From Diabrotica undecimpunctata (taxonomy: Eukaryota; Arthropoda; Insecta; Coleoptera; Chrysomelidae): a stretch of 64,000 nt of DNA. The DNA lies in assembly GCF_040954645.1 (NCBI RefSeq), contig NC_092803.1, positions 65,679,427 through 65,743,426 of the forward strand, written 5' to 3'. The position numbers and the translations under genes are program-made. Positions 9,753 through 63,253 of the stretch are shown one piece after another; positions within the stretch are counted from its first letter, which is position 1; every line of letters starts with the position of its first letter. The notes under the pieces were generated by a model that was not told the origin of the DNA, did no database searches, and saw only the letters and a list, made by a program, of their open reading frames with translations.

Positions 9753-12169
9753 GTGAATTTCGAATCGATCATCGGTCCATATGGCTTAGGAACCAGGAAC
9801 GAACGAGGTACACGTTTTGTTGAATTTTGCCAAGACAACAACCTGGTGGTTCTTAACACATGGTTTAAATTACGTAAAGACGTCTATATACGTGGAGGTT
9901 TCCACAAGATTGCGAAGGAAATATTGTGAGGAACCAAATCGACTACATTACAAATAACAAAAGGTTCCGTAATGGTATTCTAAATGTAAAAACGTACCCA
10001 AGCTCTGACATAAATTCAGACCACAATCCTCTAGTCGCAACTATATGATTAAAACTTAAAAGAGTAGACAAGGCTAAACCCAGTCAGAGAATAGCATGGA
10101 GTAGTGCTGACCAAGGACAGCAACAGAAGTATGAAGACATGGTAAACACGCAGTTAGAGTCTAAGACAATACCAGTAAACAGAAGACAATAAATGAAAAC
10201 ATTGAAGACATTTGGGAGAAAATTAAAAATACTGTCTGGGAGGCAGCAGACCAAAGTATACAGAAAGAAAACGGTAAACATAGAAAACCATGGATGGCAA
10301 ACGAAATATTACAAATTATGGAGAGGAGCCGGATGGTAAAAAACAAAAACCTACCAAGATATAAAGAACTCAACAGGGAAATTAAGAAAAAAATTAATGT
10401 AGCTAAGGAAGAGTGGATGAAAGAAAAATGTAAAGAGGTAGAAGATTTGCAAATGAACAATAAAGATAGAGAACTATACAGAAAGGTTAAAGAAGTAGCT
10501 GGAATATGGAAACTCAAACACTTATCTATTGTAACAAACAAGAAAAACCAAATGTGATTAGACCCTAAAAAACAGAAAGAACTATGGGAGCAATATCTTA
10601 AAGATTTGTTTGGTGATCAGAGAACAGAAGAGCCCCCACAAATAGATACAGATGAAAAATTTAACATTCTTAAAGAAGAAGTATTGCAGCCAATAAAAGA
10701 AGCAAAGAACAACAAGGCATCCGGCGAAGACCTCTAATAACAGCCGAACATTTTAAACACCCAAGTGATAATGCTGTCAGGAAATTTACGTACCTCTGCA
10801 ACATTATATATGAACATGGCATAATACCGCATGACTGGCTAACATCCACATATACAGCTCTTCCTAAAAAACAAAAAGCAAGAAAATGTGAAGACCATCG
10901 AACTGTATCCCTAATGAGTCATGCCGCGAAGATTTTTATGCGAATAATTTATAACCGAATTCAAAATAAGTGTGAAGAATACCTAAGTCGTTCTCAATAT
11001 GGTTTTAGAAAGGGTACAGGCACTAGAGAAACAATTATGGAATTGAAACTGATGGCATAAAGGTATCTTGAGGTTCCAAAACGGCTGTATGTGTGCTTTG
11101 TCGATTATAGAAAGGCCTTCGACCGCATCAAACACGAAAAATTGATTGAGGTGCTAAAAGAAGTAGGGTTGGACGGACACGACATAGCTATCATAAGTAA
11201 TACATACTGGAACCACACAGGATGCGTTCGAACAGAGAACGGAAACACCAAGTATATCAACATAGAACGAGGAGTGCGTCAAGGGTGCATTTTATCCCCC
11301 CTATTATTTCATGTATATGCCGAACATATAATTAGAGCTTCTCTTGAACATCGCCCTGAAGATGCCAGAGCCAATGGAATCATCATTAACAATATAAGAT
11401 ATGCCGATGACACCGTAGTATTAGCAGAAACAGAAGACCAACTAAAAATATTGATGAACATATTATCAGAAGAAAGTCACAGGCTGGGCTTGGACATTAA
11501 CTTTTCCAAAACCAAAATTATAGTATTCCACAAAAACCCCCATGAACAAGTTACACCTAACATACAAATAAATGATATCACCCTTCACAGTTCCCAAAGC
11601 TTCATATACCTGGGCAGAGAACTAAATAGTCAACTAGACCACTCAAAAGAAATTAGAAGACGCATTGAAATAGCAAGATCTGGTTTCATGAATATGCGTA
11701 AAATGCTCTGCAACCCCAAGCTATCAGTCTCAATAAGATTGATAAGTGTGCTCTCTATTACTATATGGAAATTAAAGACCTGGACATTAAAACAGTATGA
11801 CGTCAACAAATTAAATTCATTTGAAATGTGGATGTACCGCCGAATGCTAAGAATAAGCTGGACCAGCAGAACTACGAATGAAGAACTACTGAGAGCAATG
11901 AAAACGCCCTCATCTGGTTAATACTATCAATATTAGAAAGACGTCATATCTAGGACACATAATACGCCATAAAGAATTTGAGCAGCATAGGGAATTGATG
12001 CAAAGCAAAATTCGAGGAAAGCGAAATGTAAGAAGACAAAGAATGTAGTGGCTTAAGAAATTGACATGGTGGTTTGAATGCGGTAGTGCAGAACTATTTA
12101 GAGCGGCAGTCAACAGGGTCCGCATAACCGTGATGACTTCCAACCTTCGATAGAAGACGGACTTAAAGA
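9753..12169 (+). pseudogene. LINE with endonuclease and RT (copy B), frameshifted
   Basis: The longest LINE copy of this family in the window. It begins inside the endonuclease (IIGPYGLGTRNERGTRF; the catalytic SDHNPL motif near 10015). It passes a charged linker (10290-10560) and enters the RT with AKNNKASG, WLTSTYTALPKK, SQYGFRKGTGTRE, FVDYRKAFDRIKH (first catalytic Asp), GVRQGCILSPLLF and NIRYADDTVVLAE (catalytic YADD intact). It ends with a thumb and basic tail, GHIIRH...RGKR. One open frame runs 11091-11921. Stops and frameshifts near 10556, 10735, 11058 and 11920 inactivate it. The 5' end is truncated and the 3' end is A/G-rich (AAAGAAGA) at about 12169, followed directly by jockey sequence. 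Confidence 0.75.
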
Positions 12170-38010: not shown

Positions 38011-39730
38011 TTTTCAACCGAAATTTAAATCTCCGCTAATAAATGGATAATATTCAGCCCTTCCAGAATCAAGCTAATTTGCCAAAAACAAAGAAAAATA
38101 AATGCACAAAACAAGCGTACTAAAGTAATCACTCTCTCAATTATTATTGTACTCTTTTCACCATTTTTATTACTCGAAACAAGTCCTTAATTTCACCATT
38201 TCCACTCCGGGATTACGTTCCAGAGAAATATTTTAGAAAAAAAAACCAGTAAAGCAACGCGGCAAATGTGATGTAATCGAATCAATTGCCGATGTAAAAA
38301 TTTCGCCGAATAAACGTAATGTTTACATTTCCCTTTTTATTGAGATGCCAGTTCCGATGATCGATTTTTGCTTAATGTTAGAGGTGTTGTAGTAGGATCC
38401 AAACAGTGATCCGAAATTCCTGAAAAAGAACGACCCGAACTGGTCAATTTTAAACAGTAAATGTTGATTAAGCTTGATGTAGGTTTGCATGTAGATATGT
38501 GTATATTTTGTGTTTGTGCGTGGGTGTATGCGTGAATGTGTGTCACGTTCAATCAACAAGTCAACAGTTAATAACAAAGCTGCAGCTCCTATGTCATATT
38601 CGCAGTTGCTCCACGAGTGTTTATTTAGTTATAACTTATACACAACTACCATATACACCCATAGGACGGTTTCCATTAGCCATTGTGAAGTGACATGTCA
38701 GGGATGAGAACTTTCACACGTCGTCTGTACTAAGCGGAGTATTAGAAAGCTCCTGCTCAGTTGAAAACTCCCCCCGATACAGCTTTAGGCAGGCACAGAA
38801 ACAAATCAATTACTTAACAATGTAACTCACTTTGAAAATCGTCGTTACAATAACGATACACCTCTATCAAACACGATCCTCGAACGGAAACACTAATAGT
38901 TTTTCTCATTTTCCTGCGAGAAAATCTCTCTTCGGTTAATACAAAGGTCCATAAACATGTTTTGAAATATGGATCGATCGGAAAAGAAAACAATGTGGAT
39001 GTTTGAACAACGAAACGGGGTGGATTCTATCAGTGAATGGTATATTAATGAACTTGCCACGAAAGCACATGCGAACTACGGTAAACAAAAAAAAATACAT
39101 ATGTGTAGTTGATGAGTTTATCTAAAACATACAGTTAGATATTGAAAATCTAATTTAGATATATTGCTGTGTTGATTTAAAAATAATTTATTTATTTAAA
39201 ATTGTTAAAAAGCCGGTATTTGAAAATAAAAATAAAATAGTTTTTTATTTTGTTGAGTTCAACAATTGTAAGTTAATTTTTTGTAAAATAAGACAGTTAT
39301 TAATAATAACGGAAAGTTGCGTATGTACTATAGAAGAATGCTACTATGATAATCAATAAATATATGTATATACCTACACAAATTTTGCGAGCAACTTATT
39401 GGCAACAAAATCTGGCTTTACGAAAAGTTTTGGAATAAGACTCAGATCCAGTGATAGTTACATGAGAAATGGAAAACTAAAAAAATAATAGCTACCGATG
39501 CATATTTTCAGAGAATATATAAAACAACTAGATCCAACTCAACAAAAGAAATACCCTCTATGGAAGGCTATTTTAAAATAAAAAAACACAATACTACATA
39601 TCACCTACAAGAAAAGAAGGGCGAAAAAAGAGCTATTCCAGCTTGAAATATCAGAAAAAAGCTTACAATAAAATTTAAAGCAAAAAATATAGTCAGATTC
39701 CATATCAATCTCAAAGAAGCTCCAAGTTAC
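38011..39730. other. No gene seen
   Basis: AT-rich, with a GT-rich run near 38490-38545. No supported gene. Confidence 0.5.
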
Positions 39731-39734
39731 GACC

Positions 39735-40585
39735 TTCATCATCAGCCGTTTTCAGCACTGCTGGACATAGGCCTCCCGTAAATAATTCCAATGCATTCTA
39801 TCTTGAGCACCGTGAATCCAGTTGTCCTGAATGCGCTTGATGTCATCTGACCACCTTGTTGGAGGACGTCCTTGATTACGATAAGCATCGTGTCTAGGTT
39901 TCCATTCCAGAATTTTCTTCGTCCACCTTCCATCTTTTAATCTGCCCAGTTCCATTTCAATGTTGTAATCCTTTGAACTGCGTCAGTAACACCAGTTTTT
40001 CTTATAATTATTGTATATGATGCTCTGTCTCTGAGGGATATATTCAACATTGACCTCTCCATCGCTCTCTGTGCCACTTATATTTTATTGATTACTTTTC
40101 TGGTAAGGGTCAATGTTTCTGCTCCATACATTAGAAGTGGGAGTACACATTGATCAAAGACCTTAATTTTCAAGCACATGGGAATATCTATTCTCCTGTT
40201 TAGCTCCGTTGTTTGATTATCTCTTCCTAATTTAATCTCGTGGCCCAGATATTTATAGCTATACACCTGTTCAATTTGCGTGCCGTTAGTTGAGATGTTT
40301 TTCGCCAGTACTAGGTTGGTCATATATTATGTTTTGAAGAAATTAATTTTAAGTCCAACTCGTGTACACGAGCTCTGAAGGTCTTGAAGAAACTGGCAGG
40401 CATGATCTACCCGGTCTGCAATAAGGACTATGTCGTCTGCAAATCTCAAGTTGTTCAGAAATTCTCCATTTATGTTGACTCCAATATTCTCCCAATTATT
40501 GTTTCTCATAGGACTTTGCAACAATGCGGTGAATAGCTTAGGAGAGATGGTATCTCCTTGCCTAATACCCCTCTCGAAGGGAAAT
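39735..40585 (-). pseudogene. RTE-like LINE RT, minus strand
   Basis: Reading down from 40585: RGIRQGDTISPKLFTALLQ, then an open stretch with FLNNLRFADDIVLIADRV (FADD intact) and VGLKINFFKT at 40524-40327, then YSYKYLGHEIKLGRDNQ, ELNRRI, FDQCVLPLLMYGAETL at 40323-40078, and a tail GRPPTRWSDDIKRI, AQDRMHWNYLREAYVQQ at 39955-39750. It ends in TGATGATGAAG, a microsatellite-like 3' end as in RTE-type elements. It is 5' truncated and broken between the three stretches. It is distinct from the other LINE families here. Confidence 0.75.
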
Positions 40586-40589
40586 GTAT

Positions 40590-41650
40590 TTGTGTTGCAA
40601 TATTACATTCTAACTGCAACTGTAGCGCTATTTTACGTTTAATATAATGGCTCCACTCTGTCTTCGAACACTGCTATTACTGACGAATACGAGTGAATTT
40701 TAAAAAGCAGAATTATTTAAAATATATAAATAGCGACAAATAAAAGGTAATTGATTTAATTTTTACCATTTGATTGATGAATATTTAAATCACCAAGAGA
40801 GTATTGAACCGGTATCGGACCGGTACTGAATCGAGAGTGAAACGAAATATATACACTCGAAGAATCTGCATAATAATTTTTACCTACATACATGTCGAGT
40901 TATAGAAATATCGATATATTTAATTGTTTATCAACTACACTTAAATCGGTGACCCACTTCCTCAATGTAATATATTAATTTTACTAAGTATGTTTACTAT
41001 CATTAATATAAAATATTAATACCAAATATGGTTAAATGTAATATTACAAACAGTTTCTAAAAAACTAACAATAAAGGTTTTCTTACTGTATAATATCTAC
41101 AATATTACTGACTTTTTTAATAACTTTTTTAAGAGTCTTAAAATTGTCGAAAGAAAAAGAGAAAAACGCAGAATACTTCATTTAAAAATTAGATGGCTCA
41201 TAGGGCAAACACTTACCTACTTCAATGTGCGAACTTTAGTGGACTTGTGTTTTGGGCTACACTCCAGTCAGAAATTATTCAAAAGCGGCTATATATTCAG
41301 CACAAGTGAATTTGCGTTTTTGAACTGGAATTATCGCGTAAATCAAGTCTGCCAATGGATGCTACGATGTAATAAAGGATCTCGCAGCTCGCTGACACTC
41401 ATTCATGGATAACTACAGAAAGGCACTTCTGGACGCTAGAAAACCGGTGTAGAGATGCACTCCTTATATATATTATTTTTAATGCATTTAAAGAGAATTA
41501 ATAAAAAAAAGGGACAAAACCGCACAGTTAAGAATAAGTTAAGCGAAATAAGACAACGCATATACTTATGTAGTTGTAAAGTTTAAAATATTCGTCAAAT
41601 GTTAAGAATCTTGCTAGTGTTTGAATTTTGCTGGTATTTAACCCTGTATA
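40590..41650. other. No gene seen
   Basis: AT-rich; nothing supported. Confidence 0.5.
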
Positions 41651-41960
41651 GTTTAACGTTATAGTCGCTTTAGTCCAGTCGTCAGATAGTTGACCGCTAA
41701 AAATCATACGAACAAGCTGAATTTTGCTGAGAATATTAATTTTGGGACCCCAAAAATGATGCAAAAAAATTTACCACATTTACCCCCGGGATTCCTCCTA
41801 AAACCCCCCTTGTAGGTGGGTAAAACGCAAAAAATCGATTTATCAAGAATCTGTACGTCGTGGAAAAAAGTTTCAAATAAAAAATGTAGCTGAGATAATT
41901 TTAAACAAATATTTTTATAATGAAAAAGACAGTCAAGATTTGATTTCAAGTACAAAGTGT

Positions 41961-42020
41961 CTATGTATCTGTTTATACGTATTTCGCCCTAATAGGGCTC
42001 ATCAGAACAGCTATTCATAG
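41961..42020 (-). ncRNA. Hammerhead ribozyme, complete core
   Basis: On the minus strand, all conserved core nucleotides are present: CTGATGA, then a 5-bp stem II (GCCCT, loop ATT, AGGGC), then GAAA. Stem III is ATAC paired with GTAT with no loop, placing a cleavable ATA triplet just before stem I. Stem I is two-part: CTGTT (42010-42006) pairs with AACAG, and beyond internal loops CTATG (42020-42016) pairs with CATAG (41965-41961). An internal loop in stem I facing the stem II loop is typical of natural hammerheads. The very short stem III suggests activity as a dimer. Cleavage would fall after the A at about 41975. It lies about 40 bases from one end of the 588-bp insertion. Confidence 0.85.
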
Positions 42021-42218
42021 GCGTTCTCAACGTGAAAAATAAATCTTTTCTGTCTTTAAGAAGCAACACTAAAATGGCTTCGATATGGACGCAATAGCGA
42101 CATCTGATAATAAATCCGTAAAATAGTTTCGAAACACAATTCAGATTTCTGCCTTAATCTGAGCCTTCTAAACATTGCAAGGCAAAACAGACGTTGATAA
42201 AGATGTTAATAGAGACAT

Positions 42219-42281
42219 ATGAGCCCTATTATACGCGAAATACCTATAAACAGATACATAGACACTTTGTACGTGAAATCA
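42219..42281 (+). ncRNA. Broken second hammerhead copy
   Basis: The inverted copy of the ribozyme module. The 3' half (GAAATACC...TAAACAG) is retained, but CTGATGA is cut to ATGA, the left strand of stem I is replaced by the 107-bp module, and stem II no longer pairs well (GCCCTATTATACGC). It is not expected to cleave. Confidence 0.7.
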
Positions 42282-43684
42282 AATCTTGACTGTCTTTTTC
42301 ATTTTATTCGGATCTACTCTGTACGAGTACAAGAAACCAATTCGCTAAGGATTTCTGCTTACTTGAGGAGACATGTCGTGGAATGCAAATTTTAGATTCC
42401 CCATGTCTCTATTAACATCTTTATCAACGTCTGTTTTGCCTTGCAATTTTTAGAAGGCTCAGATTAAGGCAGAAATCTGAATTGTGTTTCGAAACTATTT
42501 TACGGATTTAAATATTTTTATAATCACTTTTTGTATAGAATGAATCGTTCTCTTAGAAACAACGCTTTAGGCGACCGTCGAGAATGACATTTACGCGCGC
42601 GAAATCAATGTTTAATAAAATTTGTATCAGCTTGGCGGTAAAAATTTTATATCTTTTGATCCAAGTGACCTATCGACAAAAATCAAGATGCGTTTTAAAA
42701 ATAAAGAGTGCAGCTTTCATATGCAGTTTTTGTATTTTGCCGCAAATAAACTCAGTTTTTAGAAAAATGTTTGAATAAATGTGGTCCGAATTTTGCCATT
42801 TTTTACGAATCTCGTTAGATCAATCAAATTGATCACTTTCATTGACCAGTCGTAGCAAAGTTTGCATTTTTAGAGATCAATCTTTAAAACCTATGACACG
42901 AAATTTTAATTTTGAGTTGTGGCAACAGATATAAGGCATTTGAAATATGAATAAAAAACGCAGAATTTAATGTTTTACATTTCAAACGTATCATCCAAGT
43001 AGACGATTTGGGGTATAGTTTATAAAAGTTCGGTTCTTTTGAACACCGTACTAGTTTTATTGAAAAAAAAGTTTTAACGGATTTGTTGCCAAAACTGAAA
43101 ACTAAAATTTCGTGCTATAGGTTTTGAAGGTTAGGCTTTAGTAATCGAAACTTTTATTTATTTAACACCTTTATAAAATCTAAGTTTACTTGCGGCAAAA
43201 TATAAGAATTGCATACGAACGATAAACTCTTTACCTTTAAAACGCATATTGATTTTTGTCGATAGGACACTTGGATCAAAAGATATCGAACTTTTACCGT
43301 CGAGCTCATACAAATTTTATTGAACATTGATTTCGTGCACGTAACTGATATTCAAAATCGACGGTCGCTTCAAGCGTCGTTTCTGAGAGAACGGTTCATT
43401 CTACACAAAAAGTGATAATAAACATGTTTGTTTAAAATTACCTAAGCTACATTTTTTATTTGAAAATTTTTTTCTACGGAGTACAGATCGTTGGTAAATC
43501 GATTTTTTTGCGTGTGTACCCCATAGGAAGCCCGGTAGTAAAAGTGGTAAACTTTGTTGCATTTTTTTTAAGATCCCAAAATTAATATTTTCGGCCAAAT
43601 TCAGTTGTTTGTATGATTTTTAGAGATTGAGTGGCATGTTCATCTCTGACGACTGGAGTATAACCTTTTTGCAGATGTGGGATT

Positions 43685-44830
43685 TATGGAGTCAGTGACT
43701 TTTCAAATTTTATTTATAATGGTGTCCTGAACATTCCTACCAATTTTTAGCTCTATGCGAATTTTTGTAACCTCACCACTATTTTCTGGGATAACTGACC
43801 GTGTTAACATTTTGAGTTTTCGATTTTTGTTATAAAACATATTCAATAACATATTTTAAAATAAATAATTGATTCCCATTTATGTCTGAAAATTTATTTA
43901 GTTTCTAAACAACTCGCTAACCTTTGACGAGCAATTTATTATGGAGGACAATAATAAAAAATTACACGAAATATGCATAATGAATGACACAAGTGATGTG
44001 AAGGGAACACAGAAAAGCTAAATTAATAGGTTTAAACAGTACGGGAAAAGACGCAAAGAAAATAACAGAGAAAAAGTTTTTACAGCAAGTTCATTAACTC
44101 TATAAAACTTTTTGTAGCATTTCGTATTTTTAAAAGCAGTGATTATATTTTAAAGTATATAGTAAATAGTAAACAACATAATTTTAGAGTATATAATTTT
44201 CATTGGTAATTCCAGCGTGTGGTCGTTGACCTGTTGCCTTTGGAAACCAGAATATTTTGCGTTTTTAACAATCATCGCATTTATCGTAACAACTAATGTC
44301 TCTGCCAAACTTGTTTACTGAAACGACAGAAATCACAAATATATCCTGAAAGACTGGTTTTACCAAATATGTCCATCGTCACTTCGGGATTCCAAAACAA
44401 ACGTAACATAGACCAGACATATATAATATTATAATTGGATTTATCAAAACTTGACCTGCTAAAATACATTCTAGATTTAGACGGAAATTAGTGGTTAGTG
44501 AGACAATATTATAAACAGAAAAAATGGAGTAGTATTAATTTAATCGAGAAACATGTTTGTCGTCGGATATTCGAAATTGAGCTATCCTTTAATTAACTTC
44601 CACTCACCACACAGAACTAGCGACCATAACCGAGCATGAACCAGACCCTCCACCATCACACGGTATCACGACTCTCGGTGTGGAACAAACTACCTTATAA
44701 ATCGTAACGTAAATCTGAGATACGCCGAAATCAATAATTTATGGACACACTCTAATATACAGTAACGGTTGCATAGAAGAACAACGATCACCACATACCA
44801 ATATATTCAAAATCAATGATTCGCCAACTA
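43685..44830. other. No gene seen
   Basis: AT-rich; no supported gene. Confidence 0.5.
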
Positions 44831-44834
44831 TTTC

Positions 44835-44957
44835 TCATAATCATTAGAGGTATACCACGAAGAAGACCACGAAAACGATGGAATAACAAGGACAATGGAC
44901 TGGAGGCACATTGAAAAACAGACAGAGTCATTTCTATATAAAAAGAAGAAGAAGATT
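44835..44957 (+). pseudogene. LINE C-terminal tail scrap
   Basis: Reads RGIPRRRPRKRWNNKD and ends in a GAAGAAGAAGA tail, like the basic tails and 3' ends of LINE copies elsewhere in the window. Too short to assign a family. Confidence 0.4.
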
Positions 44958-45439
44958 AGTATAGACTTAACTTAGTTGAACCTCAATCTTCCAAAGCTTA
45001 TTTCTTCATCCGATTCTACTTTCTGCAACTTGGTACCAGTTGACCAAGCCGATATTTCTGGCATTCCTATCCACATAATTCCACTATCTCTGCTTGGTAT
45101 ACCTCTTCGTTCAGTTCCACTGGTTTTCGTCACAAAAATCTTACAGAATAGCTTTTATTGTTCTAGCTAAATATTCTGCCCACTGCAGCGATTTTTATAG
45201 CAGTAATTATCTTTTTGTTTTTAGCAGTTTATTTGTACTTGTATAGCTTGAGGTTATATCAATGACGCCAGCGTTATGAGGCTTTGTATTTTTCGGAGGA
45301 CTTCTGGAAGACTTTCTGGGGCAGTTTGTTTTTATCTATACCCCATGTTTCAAATCAATAATATATTAAAACTAGAAATTAAAGTTTTTCATACCACGAT
45401 CTTTATTTTTCTTCGCTATCTTACAAAGTGTAGCTTATA

Positions 45440-45850
45440 TCTACTTTGATTACGTGCAACAATATCCACGTCATGTGAATACTCCAATATTTGAGCCAGT
45501 CTATTAAATCATCATCAGCAGCTATTCCATCCATCGTCGGATGTAAGCCTTCTTTAGGTTTGTGCATTGACTTCTGTTCGTTGTTTTTTGCATTCATTCG
45601 TGACCAGCCGTTCGCCTGTTGACTTGTTTGACTTTCATTCTTCCTATGTGACGTGCTCAGTTCGTCAGATGGCAATCTTTTGGATTACATCTGTTACTTT
45701 TGATCGTTTTCTTATTTTCAATTAGATATGCGGATTATCTGTTCCATAGCTCTCTGTTACTTAAAGTTTCTGGACTATGTTGTTGTTAAAAGCCCATGTT
45801 AAAGTTCCGTATGTCAGAGTCGGCAATACATACTTGTCAAAAGTTTTTGA
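45440..45850 (-). pseudogene. RTE-like LINE thumb remnant, minus strand
   Basis: DKYVLPTLTYGTLTWAFNN (45850-45780) resembles the thumb of RTE-type RTs (usually F-D-Q-x-V-L-P-x-x-T-Y-G-A-E-T-W). Decayed downstream text reads VTESYGTD, SKRLPSDELSTS and so on. The open 84-codon stretch below it (45675-45421) has no clear domain. Old and tentative. Confidence 0.4.
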
Positions 45851-45859
45851 CTTTAACGT

Positions 45860-46705
45860 ATTTATTGTCGTATATATAAATCATCGATCGAGAATTTCGG
45901 ACATAAGGCATTCGCATTTATATTTGAATTATATTAGATCTGAATTTATACATTGGTCCTTCGAGCCAGATAACAAATAGAACAACAAATCTTCAACAAC
46001 AAACTTCCACAACAAATAGAAAATGTTCAAATACATATAAAACAATGTGTGATTAAACACTCTTAATTAGCTACTATACCTCTGTTCTTGTCTCTGAAAA
46101 GATTTAGTTTGGGTTTAAATTATTCTCTTCCGAAACTATATTTTCTTGGGCTAAGATTTGCTGTATATTTTATGGTTTCTTTACATACATCCCATCCCCG
46201 GCTTATTGTCGGCTCACGCATTCTATTATGTCATTTATTTCTTACTGACATCTACCGTTTGTCTTCCTTTCCAGGGACGCATCCAGTATTTCCCCAGTTT
46301 GCTAAACCACATGTTCATTGCACGTAACATTCTTGTGCAAATGACACCCTACTATTACGATGAAAAAAGGAAATTAACCAAATCTCTAAATACTACATCT
46401 GCAGAAATTTTACAAAACAACCAATCTTACCGTTGGAAAATACACTCAACTGAAGCAGATAATACAATAAAAAATAAGCAAAAGAAATAAACCACAAGCT
46501 ATGTTTGTACAAAGACAAAATAAAGACATATTTTGCTAAAATGAATGAAGTTCTTTAACACATTGCAGGAATAATAAAATAATAATAAATACATTATGAA
46601 AATCTCCAATGTGACCCATTCCACATATCAAATGAAAAAAGAATGGCATAAAGTTAGAAACGTAATAATTATAAAACATAGAATATCGTAACATTCTCAA
46701 GAAAT
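45860..46705. other. No gene recognised
   Basis: Open stretches at 46088-46490 have no recognisable domain. Confidence 0.4.
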
Positions 46706-47639: not shown

Positions 47640-48490
47640 TTGTCATTTATAAACAAGGTATTTCACAAGATTGAAGAAAGGAAACAACCCAACACCACAG
47701 GCAATTCAGAAACACTCACAAGGGAGTTAAAGATGACCATATATAAATGGCTTATCAGAAAAAATAGGAAATAAATAAACATCAACAAACAAAATACAAC
47801 AACACTCAAAACGACCAACACAATGAGATATATCCTGTCTAAAACCAAACGCAAAAACACACAAGAAAGATCAAAGAACTGCATCTGTAAAATACCCTTG
47901 AATGCAACAATTTCTATGTGAAACCGCAAGATCACTACGTGTCAGAATAAACGAACATGAAACATACATCAAGAACAGAGACTTCGACAAATCTCAGATA
48001 TACAAATATGCCTGGGATCACGAGCACAGACAACAATGGAACGAAGCATCAATAATCATGAAAGAAACAGACATGAAAAAGAGAAAATTCAAAGAAGGAT
48101 CTTTTATACTAGTTAATGAAGAAAATCGTGCAGCATACCCATCAGCAGAATGCAGCAGGCTTTGGATGCCAATACTAAAAGAAGAAGTCAATAACAAGAA
48201 CATACCAACAATATATACACAAACATTTAATCTAAGTAAACACACATTATACAAACAAATAATACAAAAAACACACAAAACAGTCAGAATTTGGTATTCT
48301 GAGTGTAAAAACACCACCCTCAGATTTTTTTCAACTAAAATCAGAGCAGCCTACACAATCAAGGCTAAGTAAGTTAACCATTAATTTTGAGAAAACATAA
48401 TCTACTAAAAACTTGTTGATTATACATTTTCGCAGAATTTAAAAAAAATCTTTTTTTGAAAACGATTTCCGGAGTGGAAATCGAAACGTC
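47640..48490 (+). mobile_element. Penelope-like element, 3' end
   Basis: An upstream degraded stretch (INKVFHKIEERKQ, KNCICKIPLECNNFY) leads into the GIY-YIG endonuclease frame. About 90 bases after its stop lies the stem-loop GATTTCC-GGAGT-GGAAATC (48464-48482) followed by GAAACGTC. An RT with a C-terminal GIY-YIG endonuclease defines Penelope-like elements; here only the very end of any RT could remain. Variants of the same 3' hairpin at 36470-36510 and 37971-38010 suggest further scattered ends. Confidence 0.6.
47902..48372 (+). pseudogene. GIY-YIG endonuclease domain of a Penelope-like element
   Basis: An open frame of 156 codons. The family pattern is Y-I-G-E-T-x-R-S-L-x-x-R-x-x-E-H. 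Here it is read as F-Y-V-G-E-T-A-R-S-L-R-V-R-I-N-E-H only if a one-base frameshift at about 47900 is allowed; the open frame itself starts QQFLCETARSLRVRINEH. It continues with SQIYKYAWDHEHR, EASIIMKETDMKKRKFKEGSFI and SRLWMPIL, which match the rest of the domain: the conserved H, and the final Glu of the K-x-K-E-x-x-x-I helix. The ATG at 47902 is not a meaningful start. It is likely inactive, given the frameshift through the GIY strand. Confidence 0.65.
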
Positions 48491-58265: not shown

Positions 58266-59963
58266 ATGTCTCAAGGAAAGAAAGGTACAAGAAGCAAAAA
58301 GAATGAAGAAGATGTGGAAGTAGAAACACAACCTATACAAGAGGAGAGTTTAGTTCAAGTTCCACAAGATACTGCAGAAATGAATCCAGAAAGAGAGGAA
58401 AATGTCAATATGGCAGCTTTGATGTCATTAATGATGCAGATGAACAAGACAATAGAAGAGAATTCAAAAGAAATCAAAGAAGACATAAAAAAATTGGAAG
58501 AGAATTCAAAAGAAGTCAAAGAAGACATAAAAAAATTGGAAGAGAATTCAAAAGAAGTCAAAGAAGACATGAAAAAAATAGAACAAAAAATGGAACAGAA
58601 TTTACAAGAAGTCAAAGAAGACATGAAAAAAATGGAACAGAAATTGGAAGAGAATTATAGAAAATTAGAAAAGAAAATAGAAGATAATAATAATAAAATT
58701 GTAAAACAAATGGAAAAACAAATGGATAAAAAACTTGAAGCTGCAGAGAAAAAAGTAGCAAATGAAATAAAAAGTATACGGAATGACTACAAGAAAAGGA
58801 TAGACAATGAGAGGACAGAAGTAAAGAGGATTATTCAAGATAATAAAATAGATATAGAACAGAAAATAGAGTTACAGAAATGTAACTTAGAAGTAAAAAT
58901 TAACGAAGACAGGAGAAACACAGAAGAAAAATTAGACGATATACAACAAAATATCCAAATAAATAGTAATCAAATAAGAAATGTGGAACAGAGAATAGAT
59001 GATATTTCACAAATGAGAGACATAGGGAGACCTTACTTAAATTTAACAAATGAGACTGGGATTAAATTCTCTGGTAATATAAAAAATTTGCATCCTAGAG
59101 TATACATAAATAGTTTAAAACATAAATTAAGATTTGTGAATAATATTAATGATATTAAAGATTATATTAGAATGACATTAAATGACAATGCAGCAACTTG
59201 GTTTGCTAGTATTGAGAATGATTTAGATAATTTTCAAACATTTGAAAATAAATTTTTAAATTATTATTGGGGTGAATTAGAGCAAGCCAAGTTTAGAGAA
59301 ATTCTATATTTTGGAAAGTATAATCAAAATTTAAAATCAAATATGGTAGATTATGCATTGAAATTGATAACAGTTGCAAAATATTTAGAACCACCACTTA
59401 GAGAGGATGAAACAGTCTTAAATGTATCTAGACATTTTGATGCTGATGTTGTGCAAACCGTAACTGTACAAAATATTCAAACAATAGATAGTTTTATTAA
59501 TTTTATTCAAAGAATACAAAGAGGCAATATGACAAGTAATAATAATAACAGAAAAAACAATAGTAACTTTCAATATAATAGAAATGATAATCAACAATAT
59601 AGACAATCATATAATAATTATAGATATGTTGATAGTTTACAAAATTTTAATAATAATAATAGTAATCAAAATAGACAGAATTTTAATAACAATACTAGTT
59701 ATAATAGACAACATTTTAATAACAGTACTAATAATAATAAACAAGATTTTAACAATAGAAGAAATACAGAGCGACCTAACTATAACAGACAGGTAAATTG
59801 TGTTCGAAGGAATAGAAGCTGCGAAGACAGGGAACGAAATAGTACAAGGCAAGAAAATGTGAGTAGAAGTCATAGTAGGGAAAGACATAGGACATCAGAT
59901 CCAAGTGGTCAGATACAATCTGACAATTCTAATAATCAAAATTTTGTGCAGTTAACTTTCTGA
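58266..59963 (+). CDS. gag: Gag of the LTR retrotransposon
   Basis: A 565-codon frame starting at an ATG in a CAAAATG context, the first in-frame start after the primer site. Residues 1-60 are acidic and polar. Residues about 60-230 are almost wholly charged with heptad-like spacing (ENSKEVKEDIKKLE and variants), predicting a long coiled coil. From about 265 to 420 is a capsid-like region (GNIKNLHPRVYINSLKHKL, NDNAATWFASIEN, FENKFLNYYWGELEQ) as in Ty3/gypsy capsids. The C-terminal 145 residues are Asn-rich and then Arg-rich, and would bind RNA; no C-x2-C-x4-H-x4-C knuckle is present. It ends 28 bases into the overlapping pol frame. Confidence 0.9.
   Translation: MSQGKKGTRSKKNEEDVEVETQPIQEESLVQVPQDTAEMNPEREENVNMAALMSLMMQMNKTIEENSKEIKEDIKKLEENSKEVKEDIKKLEENSKEVKEDMKKIEQKMEQNLQEVKEDMKKMEQKLEENYRKLEKKIEDNNNKIVKQMEKQMDKKLEAAEKKVANEIKSIRNDYKKRIDNERTEVKRIIQDNKIDIEQKIELQKCNLEVKINEDRRNTEEKLDDIQQNIQINSNQIRNVEQRIDDISQMRDIGRPYLNLTNETGIKFSGNIKNLHPRVYINSLKHKLRFVNNINDIKDYIRMTLNDNAATWFASIENDLDNFQTFENKFLNYYWGELEQAKFREILYFGKYNQNLKSNMVDYALKLITVAKYLEPPLREDETVLNVSRHFDADVVQTVTVQNIQTIDSFINFIQRIQRGNMTSNNNNRKNNSNFQYNRNDNQQYRQSYNNYRYVDSLQNFNNNNSNQNRQNFNNNTSYNRQHFNNSTNNNKQDFNNRRNTERPNYNRQVNCVRRNRSCEDRERNSTRQENVSRSHSRERHRTSDPSGQIQSDNSNNQNFVQLTF
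58455..58580 (+). repeat. Three 42-bp tandem repeats in gag
   Basis: Three consecutive 42-bp units (58455, 58497, 58539) encode 14-residue repeats E-E-N-S-K-E-x-K-E-D-x-K-K-x, two heptads each. They extend the coiled coil. More diverged units follow to about 58670. Confidence 0.9.
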
Positions 59964-62900
59964 ATTACAAGTTAGGCCATTGCTATTATGAAAAACCTTC
60001 TGAATTTATTTCTTTAGATGAAGATAAAATTATTGAATCTATTAATTTAATTTATATAAATGCTTTGGCCAAAAATAAAATGATTAAGATTATGATAGAT
60101 ACTGGTTCAGAAAGTACTTTAGTCTCGGAGAATTTTATTTTTAATACATTAAAACTATCAGATATAATAAAGATTCCAAAAATTAAAATTATTGGTGCAA
60201 ATAATAAGAAGTTGGGTGAAATTGATAAACTAGCCAATTTTAAAATTAATATTCTTAATAAAGAAATTAATATGCAAGGATTTATTGTCAAGGATTTATG
60301 TGTTGATATATTAATGGGAAATGATGAATTGGAAAAGAAGAAAGTAAAGATAGATTTTGAAGAAAAAATGGTAACTTTGGAAGGGCAAATAATTAAATTT
60401 ATGCAGAAAGATGAGGTAGAAGAAGGAATAAGAGTTGATAGGATATTATTAAAAGAAAATAATGATGTTTATGAAGAAGAAATGTATTTTGATGATAGGG
60501 AAATGTCCCAAAAGAATGTAAAGAATAATTATTGTAGTGAATATTTAAGGAATGGAAATTTTAAGCAGATGGATGCCTACGAGGCGGAGTGCGTAAAATT
60601 GGAAGCAAGGAATAATGAGTACATATTGAAGAATAATGTTATTTGTAAAGAAGAAGATATGATGAAAGTTTTAAATTGCCCTGAAGAATATAAATCAATA
60701 GTCATTTCCATATTGCAGCAACACAAGGGACTTGTCAATAAAGAAAATAGAATTGCACAGAATTATATCCATAGTATAAGAGTTAAGGAGGAAAAAGATT
60801 TTAAAACAAAATCATACCCAATACCATATAAATACAGAGAAGAAGTAAACAAAACAATTAATAAGATGTTAGAAGATGGGATCATTGAGAAGGCAGACAC
60901 ACGTTTTATTAACCCCATAGTAGTAGTACGAAAAAGATCAGGTGAAATCAGGTTATGTTTGGATGCAAGAAATATTAACAAGATTACTGAAAAGCAATTT
61001 GAAGCACCAATGAGTATAGATGGAATATTAGGAAGAATTACAGGAATGTCATTTTTCACTAAAATCGATTTACAGCATAGTTTCTGGTTAATACCTCTAG
61101 AAAGAAAAAGTAGACAGTATACAGGATTTCAGATAGATGGAGTAGTATATCAATTCAAAGTAGTACCATTTGGACTTCAATCATCTTGCAGTGCTCTATG
61201 TAGATGTCTTCATGATATTTTGGATCAATATGAACATTTTGTAATTCACTACATTGATGATATATTAATTTTTTCTAAAACGGCTGAAGATCATGAGAAA
61301 CACCTAAAAATTATAATAAATAGATTAGACAAAGTTGGACTAAAAATAAATCAAGAAAAATGTACATTTTTTCAAAAAGAAGTCATATATCTAGGTTATA
61401 AACTTAACACTAAGGGAATCGAAATGGATCCAGAACGGACACAAGTCATTCAGGAATATAAAACACCACACAATTTAAGAACTTTAAGAGGATTTATTGG
61501 AATAATTAATTATTATAAAAGGATGATACCAGATCTAAGTATAAAAGAAATTCCATTACTTGAACTACTGAGAAAAGGTGTGAAATGGAGATGGGATCAG
61601 AGAAGAGAACTAGCATTCCAAGAGATTAAAAACATTTTTCTGTCAAATTTGAAAATATACTATCCTGACTACACACAGCCATTCATATTGAGAACAGATG
61701 CATCAATAGAGAGATTATCAGGGGTATTATTACAAATACATGATGGGGTCGAATACCCAATACAATTCATTTCAAGAATTACAAAGCCACATGAAAAGGG
61801 TTACTCAGTTTCAGAATTAGAACTAGCAAGTATAATACACTGTGTCACAAAATTAAGATTTTATTTGTTGGGTAATGAATTTACTATAGAAACAGATCAC
61901 CAAGCTTTAACGTCTATATTAAATAACAAATATGGAAACAGTAGAATACATCGGTGGAGTCTAATACTTAGTGAATACTGCTTTGAAATCAAATACATTT
62001 CTGGAAAATCCAATATAGTGGCAGATGCTTTATCAAGGTTAGAAAATACACCACAAAAAGGGCAGCGAACAATAAAAATTGGATTAAATCAATTAGTAGA
62101 AAGTACTGGATTATATTCTAAAGAAGAAATTATAAGAGATCAGATCAATTTGAGTGAAAAACAAAAAGTCCTTAGGAAAGATGGGGTATATTATAAAATA
62201 ATAAATGGCATAGAAGTATATGTAATAACTAGAACTTTAGCAAAGAAAATATTGAAAAATTTACATAACAATTATATGCATATTGGTTCAAGAAAGCTAT
62301 GGATGCTATTTAGGGACAATTATTTTGCAAAGAATGACATAAGTATAGCAAAGGAAATTACTACCCAATGCCCAATATGTCAACTAAACAAAGAAAAGAA
62401 TTTCAAAAACCAGAACACATATAAATCTAATGTTGTATATGAAAAACTAAATACAGTTTCCATGGATTTTATTTCAAATTTAGTTCTCAGTCCAACAGGA
62501 AAAAAGCATATACTAGTGATAGTTGATTTATATACCAAATTTATTAAACTATATCCCTGCTCTAGAACAAATGTTAAAACATTAAAATTATATATTAATC
62601 AATTTTTCGAAGAAATAGGACCGTTTAGAAATTGCATAATAGATAATGCTACATATTTTAACAACCAAAAATTTCGGACATTTTGTGAGAAAAAGGGAAT
62701 CAACATTCATTTTACAAGTATCAGACATCCTCAGGCAAATCCTGCAGAAAGATATATTAAAGAAGTTATAAAATATTTAAGGATACTGTGCCAAAATCAA
62801 CACGAAACTTGGCAGCAACATATACCACAAGTAGAGTATTTTTTAAATAATACACATAATTTGAATACAGAGGAAGTACCAGAATATTTAATGTTTGGCC

Positions 62901-63253
62901 ATATAGGAAACAGAAAGTGGATTAGTGAATATAATCAGGATATGTTAGAACAAGTAATGCAGAAAGTGAATAACCGAATTAGTAGGAAAGCTGAAAAATA
63001 TATCAGAAGACAAAATCGAAATATAAAAAAACCAATCACATTTCAAAAAGGAGACCTAGTGTTAATTCGTTCACTTAGAAAAAGTAATGTTAAAGAAAAC
63101 CGTTGTAAGAAATTACAACCAATGTTTGAAGGTCCATATACAATTGAAAATCAGAATGGACTAAATAGTTATGTGTTAATAGATGCAGAGAACAGACTAA
63201 GAGGCATATTTCATATCAACGACATTTTTCAATATCATGAAGAGATTGAATAA
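59936..63253 (+). CDS. pol: Pol: protease, RT, RNase H, integrase
   Basis: Open from 59936 in the -1 frame relative to gag, so it is expected to be made as a Gag-Pol fusion; an independent ATG start is less likely. Counting from 60065, the protease has DTGS at residue 12. The RT has LCLDARNINK near 295, PFGLQS, and YIDD near 396. RNase H carries RTDAS (about 543), SELELAS, ETDHQAL and VADALSR. Integrase has H-x4-H and C-x2-C (CPIC near 769), then D801, D860 and E895 with 34 residues between the last two and an HPQANPAERY context. A GPYTI motif near 1023 is the GPY/F module. No stop or frameshift inside. Confidence 0.93.
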   Translation, partial: SKFCAVNFLNYKLGHCYYEKPSEFISLDEDKIIESINLIYINALAKNKMIKIMIDTGSESTLVSENFIFNTLKLSDIIKIPKIKIIGANNKKLGEIDKLANFKINILNKEINMQGFIVKDLCVDILMGNDELEKKKVKIDFEEKMVTLEGQIIKFMQKDEVEEGIRVDRILLKENNDVYEEEMYFDDREMSQKNVKNNYCSEYLRNGNFKQMDAYEAECVKLEARNNEYILKNNVICKEEDMMKVLNCPEEYKSIVISILQQHKGLVNKENRIAQNYIHSIRVKEEKDFKTKSYPIPYKYREEVNKTINKMLEDGIIEKADTRFINPIVVVRKRSGEIRLCLDARNINKITEKQFEAPMSIDGILGRITGMSFFTKIDLQHSFWLIPLERKSRQYTGFQIDGVVYQFKVVPFGLQSSCSALCRCLHDILDQYEHFVIHYIDDILIFSKTAEDHEKHLKIIINRLDKVGLKINQEKCTFFQKEVIYLGYKLNTKGIEMDPERTQVIQEYKTPHNLRTLRGFIGIINYYKRMIPDLSIKEIPLLELLRKGVKWRWDQRRELAFQEIKNIFLSNLKIYYPDYTQPFILRTDASIERLSGVLLQIHDGVEYPIQFISRITKPHEKGYSVSELELASIIHCVTKLRFYLLGNEFTIETDHQALTSILNNKYGNSRIHRWSLILSEYCFEIKYISGKSNIVADALSRLENTPQKGQRTIKIGLNQLVESTGLYSKEEIIRDQINLSEKQKVLRKDGVYYKIINGIEVYVITRTLAKKILKNLHNNYMHIGSRKLWMLFRDNYFAKNDISIAKEITTQCPICQLNKEKNFKNQNTYKSNVVYEKLNTVSMDFISNLVLSPTGKKHILVIVDLYTKFIKLYPCSRTNVKTLKLYINQFFEEIGPFRNCIIDNATYFNNQKFRTFCEKKGINIHFTSIRHPQANPAERYIKEVIKYLRILCQNQHETWQQHIPQVEYFLNNTHNLNTEEVPEYLMFGHIGNRKWISEYNQDMLEQVMQKVNNRISRKAEKYIRRQNRNIKKPITFQKGDLVLIRSLRKSNVKENRCKKLQPMFEGPYTIENQNGLNSYVLIDAENRLRGIFHINDIFQYHEEIE
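59939..59945 (+). promoter_or_regulatory. Candidate -1 frameshift heptamer
   Basis: A-AAT-TTT in the gag frame fits the X-XXY-YYZ slippery pattern. It lies inside the 28-base window (59936-59963) between the last upstream stop of the pol frame and the gag stop, so a -1 slip here would join the two genes. A downstream structure is not evident by eye. Confidence 0.6.

What the first reader, a model, noticed from the sequence alone, without database searches (positions are those of the whole stretch)
41961..42020. Complete hammerhead ribozyme in an animal mobile element
All core nucleotides (CTGATGA, GAAA), a 5-bp stem II, a two-part stem I with internal loop and a loopless 4-bp stem III fit together on the minus strand within 60 bases. 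Hammerheads in Penelope-like elements and retrozymes are known as a class; this insect-type copy with an ATA cleavage triplet and near-palindromic stem III may be undescribed.
Basis: partly seen in the sequence, partly recalled or inferred. Interest (0 to 1): 0.9.

Follow-up and report, generated by a model that had tools for sequence, protein, structure and literature searches.

The report
Hammerhead ribozyme in inverted insect retroelement
A complete self-cutting RNA motif (a hammerhead ribozyme) sits in a young 588-base mobile-element insertion in what is probably a beetle genome; it looks like a new example of a known kind, in an unusually scrambled insertion.

Summary
The motif is there. 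One full type I hammerhead lies at 42020-41961, minus strand: intact core, 5-bp stem II, two-part stem I, AUA site, predicted cut after 41974. A full-fold descriptor finds it once in the window and in 0 of 8,745 dinucleotide shuffles. A covariance model from 20 viral-contig hammerheads scores it 34.4 bits, E about 1e-9; the next place has 11 bits. Rfam's gathering cut-offs miss it, but also miss 12 of 12 viral loci carrying the pattern. Correction: a loopless 4-bp stem III cannot close on itself; AUACGUAU is an exact palindrome giving 8 bp between two copies. The motif lies in a 588-bp insertion with identical 15-bp target-site duplications; the other arm of an older palindromic element keeps the empty site. 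Inside are two opposed units with the same 3' tail; one ribozyme is intact. The layout fits a pseudo-LTR remnant moved by a Penelope-like element better than a tandem retrozyme, but the source genome could not be searched, there is no coding region, and cleavage is untested. Aedes hammerheads with palindromic stem III in interspersed repeats are already in print (PMC3088659).

The parts
41961..42020 (-). Type I hammerhead ribozyme (outer stem I to outer stem I)
   Evidence: Sequence; descriptor scan and shuffles; covariance model; fold
41999..42005 (-). Core CUGAUGA; contains AUG at 42002-42000
41986..41998 (-). Stem II GCCCU/AGGGC, loop AUU
   Evidence: pair probabilities 0.81-1.0 in the 60-nt RNA
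41975..41982 (-). Palindromic stem III segment AUACGUAU (8 bp possible in a dimer, at most 2 bp with loop in a monomer)
41973..41974 (-). Predicted cleavage site, 3' of A17 (41974) in triplet AUA; 29 nt counted from the A of the AUG
   Evidence: cleavage itself not tested
41922..42509 (-). 588-bp retroelement insertion carrying the ribozyme (GC 0.352)
42510..42524 (-). Target-site duplication copy 1, ATTATAAAAATATTT
41907..41921 (-). Target-site duplication copy 2, identical
41922..42002 (-). Unit M2, 3' part (C'): from the AUG through the ribozyme's 3' half to the tail ..GACTGTCTTTTTC, adjoining the target site
42003..42111 (-). Unit M2, upstream part (E), ending in the 5' strand of stem I; no detectable similarity to X
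   Evidence: 228 of 500 shuffles score as high
42219..42303 (+). Inverted copy C: degenerate hammerhead half with the same tail; AUG frame open to the tail. Five differences from C' in 85 aligned columns
   Evidence: no R1 hit here
42112..42218 (+). X', upstream part of the inverted unit P (X'-C); 99% identical to X (107 of 108 with one flanking base)
42403..42509 (-). X, first segment of the insertion
42304..42402 (-). B, spacer between X and the inverted unit
41697..43623 (.). Older palindromic element (about 1.3 kb without the insert) whose left arm received the insertion; right arm around 43415-43437 shows the empty site

Best explanation
A genomic type I hammerhead ribozyme in a short non-autonomous retroelement, most likely a pseudo-LTR-type remnant mobilised by a Penelope-like element. 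Proposed working: a minus-sense transcript folds stems I and II around the core and cuts itself after A41974, probably well only when two copies (in tandem RNA or in trans) pair their AUACGUAU palindromes into an 8-bp stem III. In the life cycle this would trim longer or tandem transcripts into units whose 5' ends lie just inside the AUG-containing segment. Reverse transcription started at a fixed internal 'tail' site and, with template or strand switching, left two opposed units in an AT-rich target, making a 15-bp duplication. Shown by sequence: the core and stems, the insertion boundaries, the duplications, the empty site, the shared tail. Inferred: cleavage, dimer requirement, trimming role, Penelope machinery, order of events.
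For: Fold and covariance score far beyond chance. With the same model the 12 complete-fold viral loci left out of it score 32.5-58.6 bits (12 of 12 found), so 34.4 lies at the low end of that range. Insertion with identical 15-bp duplications and an empty site with no gap at the join. Both units end at the same tail letters. [quoted passage not shown] pLTR plus tail covering the first 12-22 codons, inverted pLTRs, duplications of 8-10 bp, some copies with none (PMC3846280, passages read). Here the insert ends 81 nt (27 codons) after the start of the AUG.
Against: No reverse transcriptase or endonuclease frame in the insert. The two units share nothing detectable upstream of the AUG, which a simple pair of pLTRs should. 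The inverted unit's tail points inward, not to the target site. The frame after the AUG in the ribozyme unit stops after 9 codons. In the one Penelope-like element studied in vitro, the hammerhead cut only when the element's protein was added, catalytic mutants did not affect insertion, and RNA-seq showed no ends at the cut site (PMC11167929), which speaks against a necessary trimming role. The Aedes hammerhead tested in PMC3088659 showed no cleavage under their conditions. The possible Penelope endonuclease remnant 5.9 kb away (47902-48372) is recognised from recall only: no Pfam, homologue or PDB match. In most longer RNA contexts tested stem I pairs have probability of about 0.11-0.14 in ViennaRNA, which ignores tertiary contacts, and the two-copy hammerhead structure is not the best co-fold (-28.5 against -34.9 kcal/mol). 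No second copy by exact patterns in the two collections scanned.
Confidence: 0.6

Rival explanations
1. A rearranged monomer of an animal non-LTR retrozyme: a small repeat with a type I hammerhead that makes circular RNAs and is moved in trans.
For: Type I ribozyme with two-part stem I, GC below 50% (0.352), duplication longer than 4 bp, no coding region; insects are named among hosts of such repeats (PMC7229834, sections 13 and 14 read).
Against: No direct tandem copies: only inverted repeats in the insert and its surroundings, apart from one AT-rich 25-nt pair; the units of about 190-200 nt end at a fixed tail and are not bounded by two direct hammerheads.
Confidence: 0.22
2. A short interspersed or foldback element that picked up a hammerhead; the inverted arms reflect a DNA-transposon or snap-back origin rather than Penelope machinery.
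For: Two pairs of inverted arms, 108 bp and about 88 bp; the insert lies in another palindromic element.
Against: The arms are interleaved (X, C, X', C'), not terminal; the ends of the insert are not inverted copies of each other; two units share a 3' tail, as retro-copies would.
Confidence: 0.12
3. A hammerhead-like string without function: a chance match or a decayed fossil.
For: Rfam gathering negative; stem III cannot form in a monomer as drawn; the inverted copy is broken.
Against: 0 of 8,745 shuffles give the fold; E 9.9e-10; X and X' 107 of 108 identical and the duplications 15 of 15, so the insertion is young.
Confidence: 0.06

Closest known systems
Hammerheads of Penelope-like elements (PAc of Anolis, PMC11167929, main text read; review PMC7761336, passages read)
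   Same: Type I, weak or absent stem III, AUG beside or within the core, cut 26-29 nt after the AUG, AT-rich target; inverted units as in the pLTRs of PMC3846280
   Different: No RT/EN coding region here; stem I has an extra internal loop and outer helix; upstream sequences of the two units unrelated
Repeat-associated Aedes aegypti hammerheads with palindromic stem III (PMC3088659, abstract and passages read)
   Same: Insect, interspersed repeat, stem III/loop III palindrome allowing a dimer
   Different: Their sequences were not compared; no inverted composite insertion in the passages read
Animal non-LTR retrozymes (PMC7229834, outline and sections 13, 14 read)
   Same: Type I hammerhead, GC below 50%, duplication longer than 4 bp, non-coding, a few hundred bp
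   Different: No direct tandem repeats here
Dolichopoda pDo500 satellite hammerhead (PMC2837043, passages read)
   Same: Insect hammerhead; single and double (dimer) forms proposed
   Different: A repeat of about 500 bp in a satellite; here a single dispersed insertion

Membership tests
Hammerhead ribozyme, type I | Core CUGAUGA and GAAA, stem II, NUH cleavage triplet, stem I open to the outside (definition recalled) | tested here: met
Hammerhead ribozyme, type I | Stable stem III in the monomer | tested here: not met
   Probability 0.0 in the monomer; 8 bp possible in a dimer. A weak helix III is common in this type (PMC7761336 passages), so it is not treated as defining
Hammerhead ribozyme, type I | Self-cleavage | not testable with these tools
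   Needs in vitro transcription
Hammerhead ribozyme, type I | Rfam gathering score | tested here: not met
   but no hammerhead hit either in 12 of 12 viral loci carrying the pattern, 11 of them with the complete fold
Penelope-like element | RT (and GIY-YIG EN) coding region | tested here: not met
   No frame of 150 aa or more overlaps the 588-bp insert. A Penelope-like element proper is therefore not claimed, only a non-autonomous remnant
Penelope-like element | pLTR with tail: hammerhead at the ORF start and a fixed 3' end a few dozen codons inside it | tested here: inconclusive
   Same tail in both units, 81-82 nt from the AUG; frame open in P, closed in M2; upstream parts unrelated
Penelope-like element | Target-site duplication at an AT-rich site | tested here: met
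   15 bp, ATTATAAAAATATTT
Animal non-LTR retrozyme | Direct tandem repeats of 150-450 bp each with a type I hammerhead | tested here: not met
   No such direct repeat in 39000-46000; one intact hammerhead in the window
Animal non-LTR retrozyme | GC below 50% and duplications longer than 4 bp | tested here: met
   GC 0.352; 15 bp
Animal non-LTR retrozyme | Circular RNA of unit length | not testable with these tools
   Needs RNA

The most novel reading that the evidence does not exclude
The inverted unit is part of the working of the element: a built-in switch. In the 385-nt minus transcript that lacks X (42306-41922), the inverted copy C pairs with the ribozyme and the pair probabilities of both ribozyme stems fall to 0.0; in the full 588-nt transcript X pairs with X' instead and stem II is free again (0.78-0.97), though stem I stays at 0.11-0.14 as in the unit alone. 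Self-cleavage would then depend on where transcription starts. If the arrangement recurs in other copies, this would be a ribozyme retroelement with an antisense off-switch.
Probability: 0.05. Interest if true: 0.7.

Novelty: new member of a known kind. Interest (0 to 1): 0.35.

Why it matters
The role of the minimal hammerheads in Penelope-like elements is called a mystery in the review read in part (PMC7761336). A young, precisely bounded insertion with an intact ribozyme, a broken sister unit, identical duplications and the empty site in the same window is a clean case for asking how reverse transcription starts and switches templates in such elements, and whether the ribozyme matters for insertion. 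It also shows that Rfam's gathering cut-offs can overlook complete-looking hammerheads.

Tried and rejected
Rfam as the judge of reality: set aside after it listed no hammerhead in 12 of 12 viral loci carrying the pattern. X and E as diverged copies of one upstream region: rejected, 228 of 500 shuffles score as high. P as an active hammerhead on the plus strand: rejected, no R1 hit there, core and stem II broken. P as a spliced form of X-B-E-C': dropped, as no GT..AG boundary lies at its junction (by eye). P as an independent nested insertion: no duplication seen around it (by eye). B against E and C in both orientations: nothing clear (best, B against reverse-complement C, 8 of 300 shuffles as high, uncorrected for four tests). 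Penelope endonuclease remnant at 47902-48372: no support from Pfam, homologue search or PDB, kept only as a lead. Differences between C and C' as a sign of selection: too few to say. The paper search returned 20 listed papers none of which held the term hammerhead ribozyme. Papers not held: (Lunse et al. 2017, Cervera and de la Pena 2014, Arkhipova et al. 2017), so known here only through the reference list and text of PMC7761336; one search returned an unrelated paper because I recalled a wrong DOI, and the DOI was also misremembered.

Full report
Observation. The minus strand at 42020-41961 reads CUAUG AAUAG CUGUU CUGAUGA GCCCU AUU AGGGC GAA AUACGUAU A AACAG AUA CAUAG. It has the conserved core letters of a hammerhead (consensus recalled), a 5-bp stem II beginning with G-C, a two-part stem I (5 + 5 bp around an internal loop) and the triplet AUA, with the predicted cut after 41974. 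A descriptor asking for the core, stem II of at least 4 bp, GAAA, stem III of at least 3 bp, UH and stem I of at least 4 bp finds this one place in the window, also when two core mismatches are allowed, and nothing in 8,745 dinucleotide-preserving shuffles, both strands, scanned without core mismatches. The descriptor was written after seeing the motif and allows a loopless stem III, so it is lenient, not independent. The bare pattern alone would not be remarkable: 22 of 100 shuffles hold it.

Covariance test. A pattern scan of IMG/VR gave 57 matches in 51 loci; 53 of 57 complete the whole hammerhead fold, and 32 of these are distinct. I call these viral-contig hammerheads; that the contigs are phages was not checked. 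Six of the 32 (L015, L026, L033, L034, L043, L048) were left out for long stem III loops; 26 were aligned; six more (L001, L003, L006, L022, L027, L038) were dropped because MAFFT misplaced their 3' ends; 20 were kept. In these 20, 97.7% of cells pair, with 81 double-sided changes against a shuffled mean of 24.8; as they had been chosen for completing the fold, these counts lean that way. The model R1 scores the window's motif 34.4 bits, E 9.9e-10, the next place 11.0 bits; the outermost of the model's six stem I pairs is not formed. On 16 loci not in the model, the 12 with a complete fold score 32.5-58.6 and the pattern matches of the 4 without score 17.5-43.0. Caveat: the scan pattern fixed the core, part of stem II and a CG in stem III, letters that the window's motif also has; stem I and the 3' half of stem III were not in the pattern. 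Rfam's gathering thresholds find no hammerhead in the window, and none in the 12 of 51 viral loci given to it (11 of the 12 have the complete fold), so its silence says little. At E<=10 Rfam shows Hammerhead_3 at 20.5 bits, E 0.2, in the 1.1-kb search and no hammerhead in the full-window search.

Stem III. A 4-bp helix without a loop cannot form within one molecule. The eight letters AUACGUAU are an exact palindrome, so two copies can make 8 bp. In ViennaRNA the 60-nt monomer forms stems I and II (0.81-1.0) and not stem III; a two-copy hammerhead structure evaluates to -28.5 kcal/mol against -34.9 for the best co-fold, so the dimer is feasible but not the predicted minimum. With 6 more bases on each side stems I and II have 0.52-0.71; in five of the six longer RNAs stem II persists (0.78-0.97) while stem I falls to 0.11-0.14; in the sixth, 42306-41922, both are 0.0. 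PMC3088659 (passages) describes palindromic stem III/loop III and possible dimers for Aedes and others, and that the tested Aedes and Nematostella RNAs did not cleave; PMC7761336 (passages) describes weak helix III in animal type I motifs.

Surroundings. The ribozyme lies in an insertion of 588 bp (41922-42509), flanked by identical 15-bp copies of ATTATAAAAATATTT, which interrupts the left arm of an older palindromic element. The uninterrupted right arm aligns with no gap at the join. Arms X/X' inside the insertion are 107 of 108 identical, so the insertion is young unless gene conversion has levelled them.

Inner structure, minus sense: X (42509-42403), spacer B, then an inverted unit P (plus strand, X' followed by C), then unit M2 (E followed by C', with the ribozyme). 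C and C' differ at 5 of 85 aligned columns (93% over 88) and both end in ..GACTGTCTTTTTCATT, where in M2 the ATT belongs to the duplication. Their similarity begins at the AUG of CUG-AUG, and the parts upstream (X against E) show no similarity. P's core and stem II are broken and R1 does not find it. P's frame from the AUG is open to the tail (about 27 codons, weak evidence at this length); M2's frame stops after 9 codons. As C/C' differ more than X/X', the two units probably came from different source copies.

Interpretation. Penelope-like elements have a hammerhead at the ORF start, a fixed internal start of reverse transcription inside the ORF, AT-rich ATT targets and extension of both strands (PMC11167929, main text read), and inverted pLTRs with tails and target-site duplications (PMC3846280, passages read). 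The cut 29 nt from the AUG, the common 3' end 81-82 nt from it, the ATT-starting AT-rich duplication and the opposed units match that pattern. Against it: no coding region, unrelated upstream parts, and the inverted unit's tail pointing inward. Against the trimming role: the same paper reports that the Anolis hammerhead cut only with protein present, that catalytic mutants did not change insertion in vitro, and that no reads ended at the cut site. Animal retrozymes (PMC7229834, sections 13 and 14 read) fit in GC and duplication length but occur as direct tandem repeats, which are absent here. I therefore call it a hammerhead by sequence and fold with high confidence, and a Penelope-mobilised non-autonomous remnant with moderate confidence; it is not filed as a Penelope-like element proper.

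Host. Five of nine long frames scanned match the reverse-transcriptase family RVT_1. The 1062-aa Ty3-type polymerase at 60065-63253 has 479 relatives at E<=0.001, of which 120 were listed; the organisms named in that list are Henosepilachna, Photinus and the assembly of a Wolbachia of Psylliodes (beetles or beetle-associated, from recall), and Cuerna and Cordylochernes (other arthropods). A beetle is likely, not proven.

Novelty. Hammerheads in insect repeats and in Penelope-like elements are known. Searches combining hammerhead with insect, Penelope, dimer, retrozyme, inverted repeat and beetle and one for Penelope-like with pLTR and inverted listed no title or abstract opening that points to this element; seven of the listed or cited papers were opened, none whole, and key papers are not held. 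A new member of a known kind, in an unusual composite.

Limits. The source genome could not be searched, so copy number, covariation among copies and a full-length relative remain unknown.

Noticed in passing
L006 (hits at 11643, 12066, 12598, 13132); L016, L029, L041, L047, L050 (pairs 639 nt apart); L028 (646 nt apart); L026, L038, L043, L049: Several viral contigs carry two to four hammerhead hits, from about 420 nt to 2.5 kb apart. In L041, the only one looked at, small frames lie between the pair. The 639-nt pairs are near-identical sequences. Multiple arrangements are already known in bacteria (PMC3088659 passages).
   Followed up: partly
window 41697-43623: An older foldback-like palindromic element, arms 78-90% complementary, about 1.3 kb without the insert; family not identified.
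   Followed up: partly
window 47902-48372 (+): A 156-aa frame that from recall resembles the C-terminal part of a Penelope GIY-YIG endonuclease, followed near 48462-48490 by CGATTTCCGGAGTGGAAATCGAAACGTC, a hairpin ahead of GAAAC; no database support for the protein.
   Followed up: partly
window 42219-42509 against 41922-42002: Competing pairings X/X' and C/C' decide in silico whether the ribozyme's 3' half is free.
   Followed up: partly
window 58266-63253: A Ty3-type retrotransposon with two long open frames (565 and 1062 aa).
   Followed up: no
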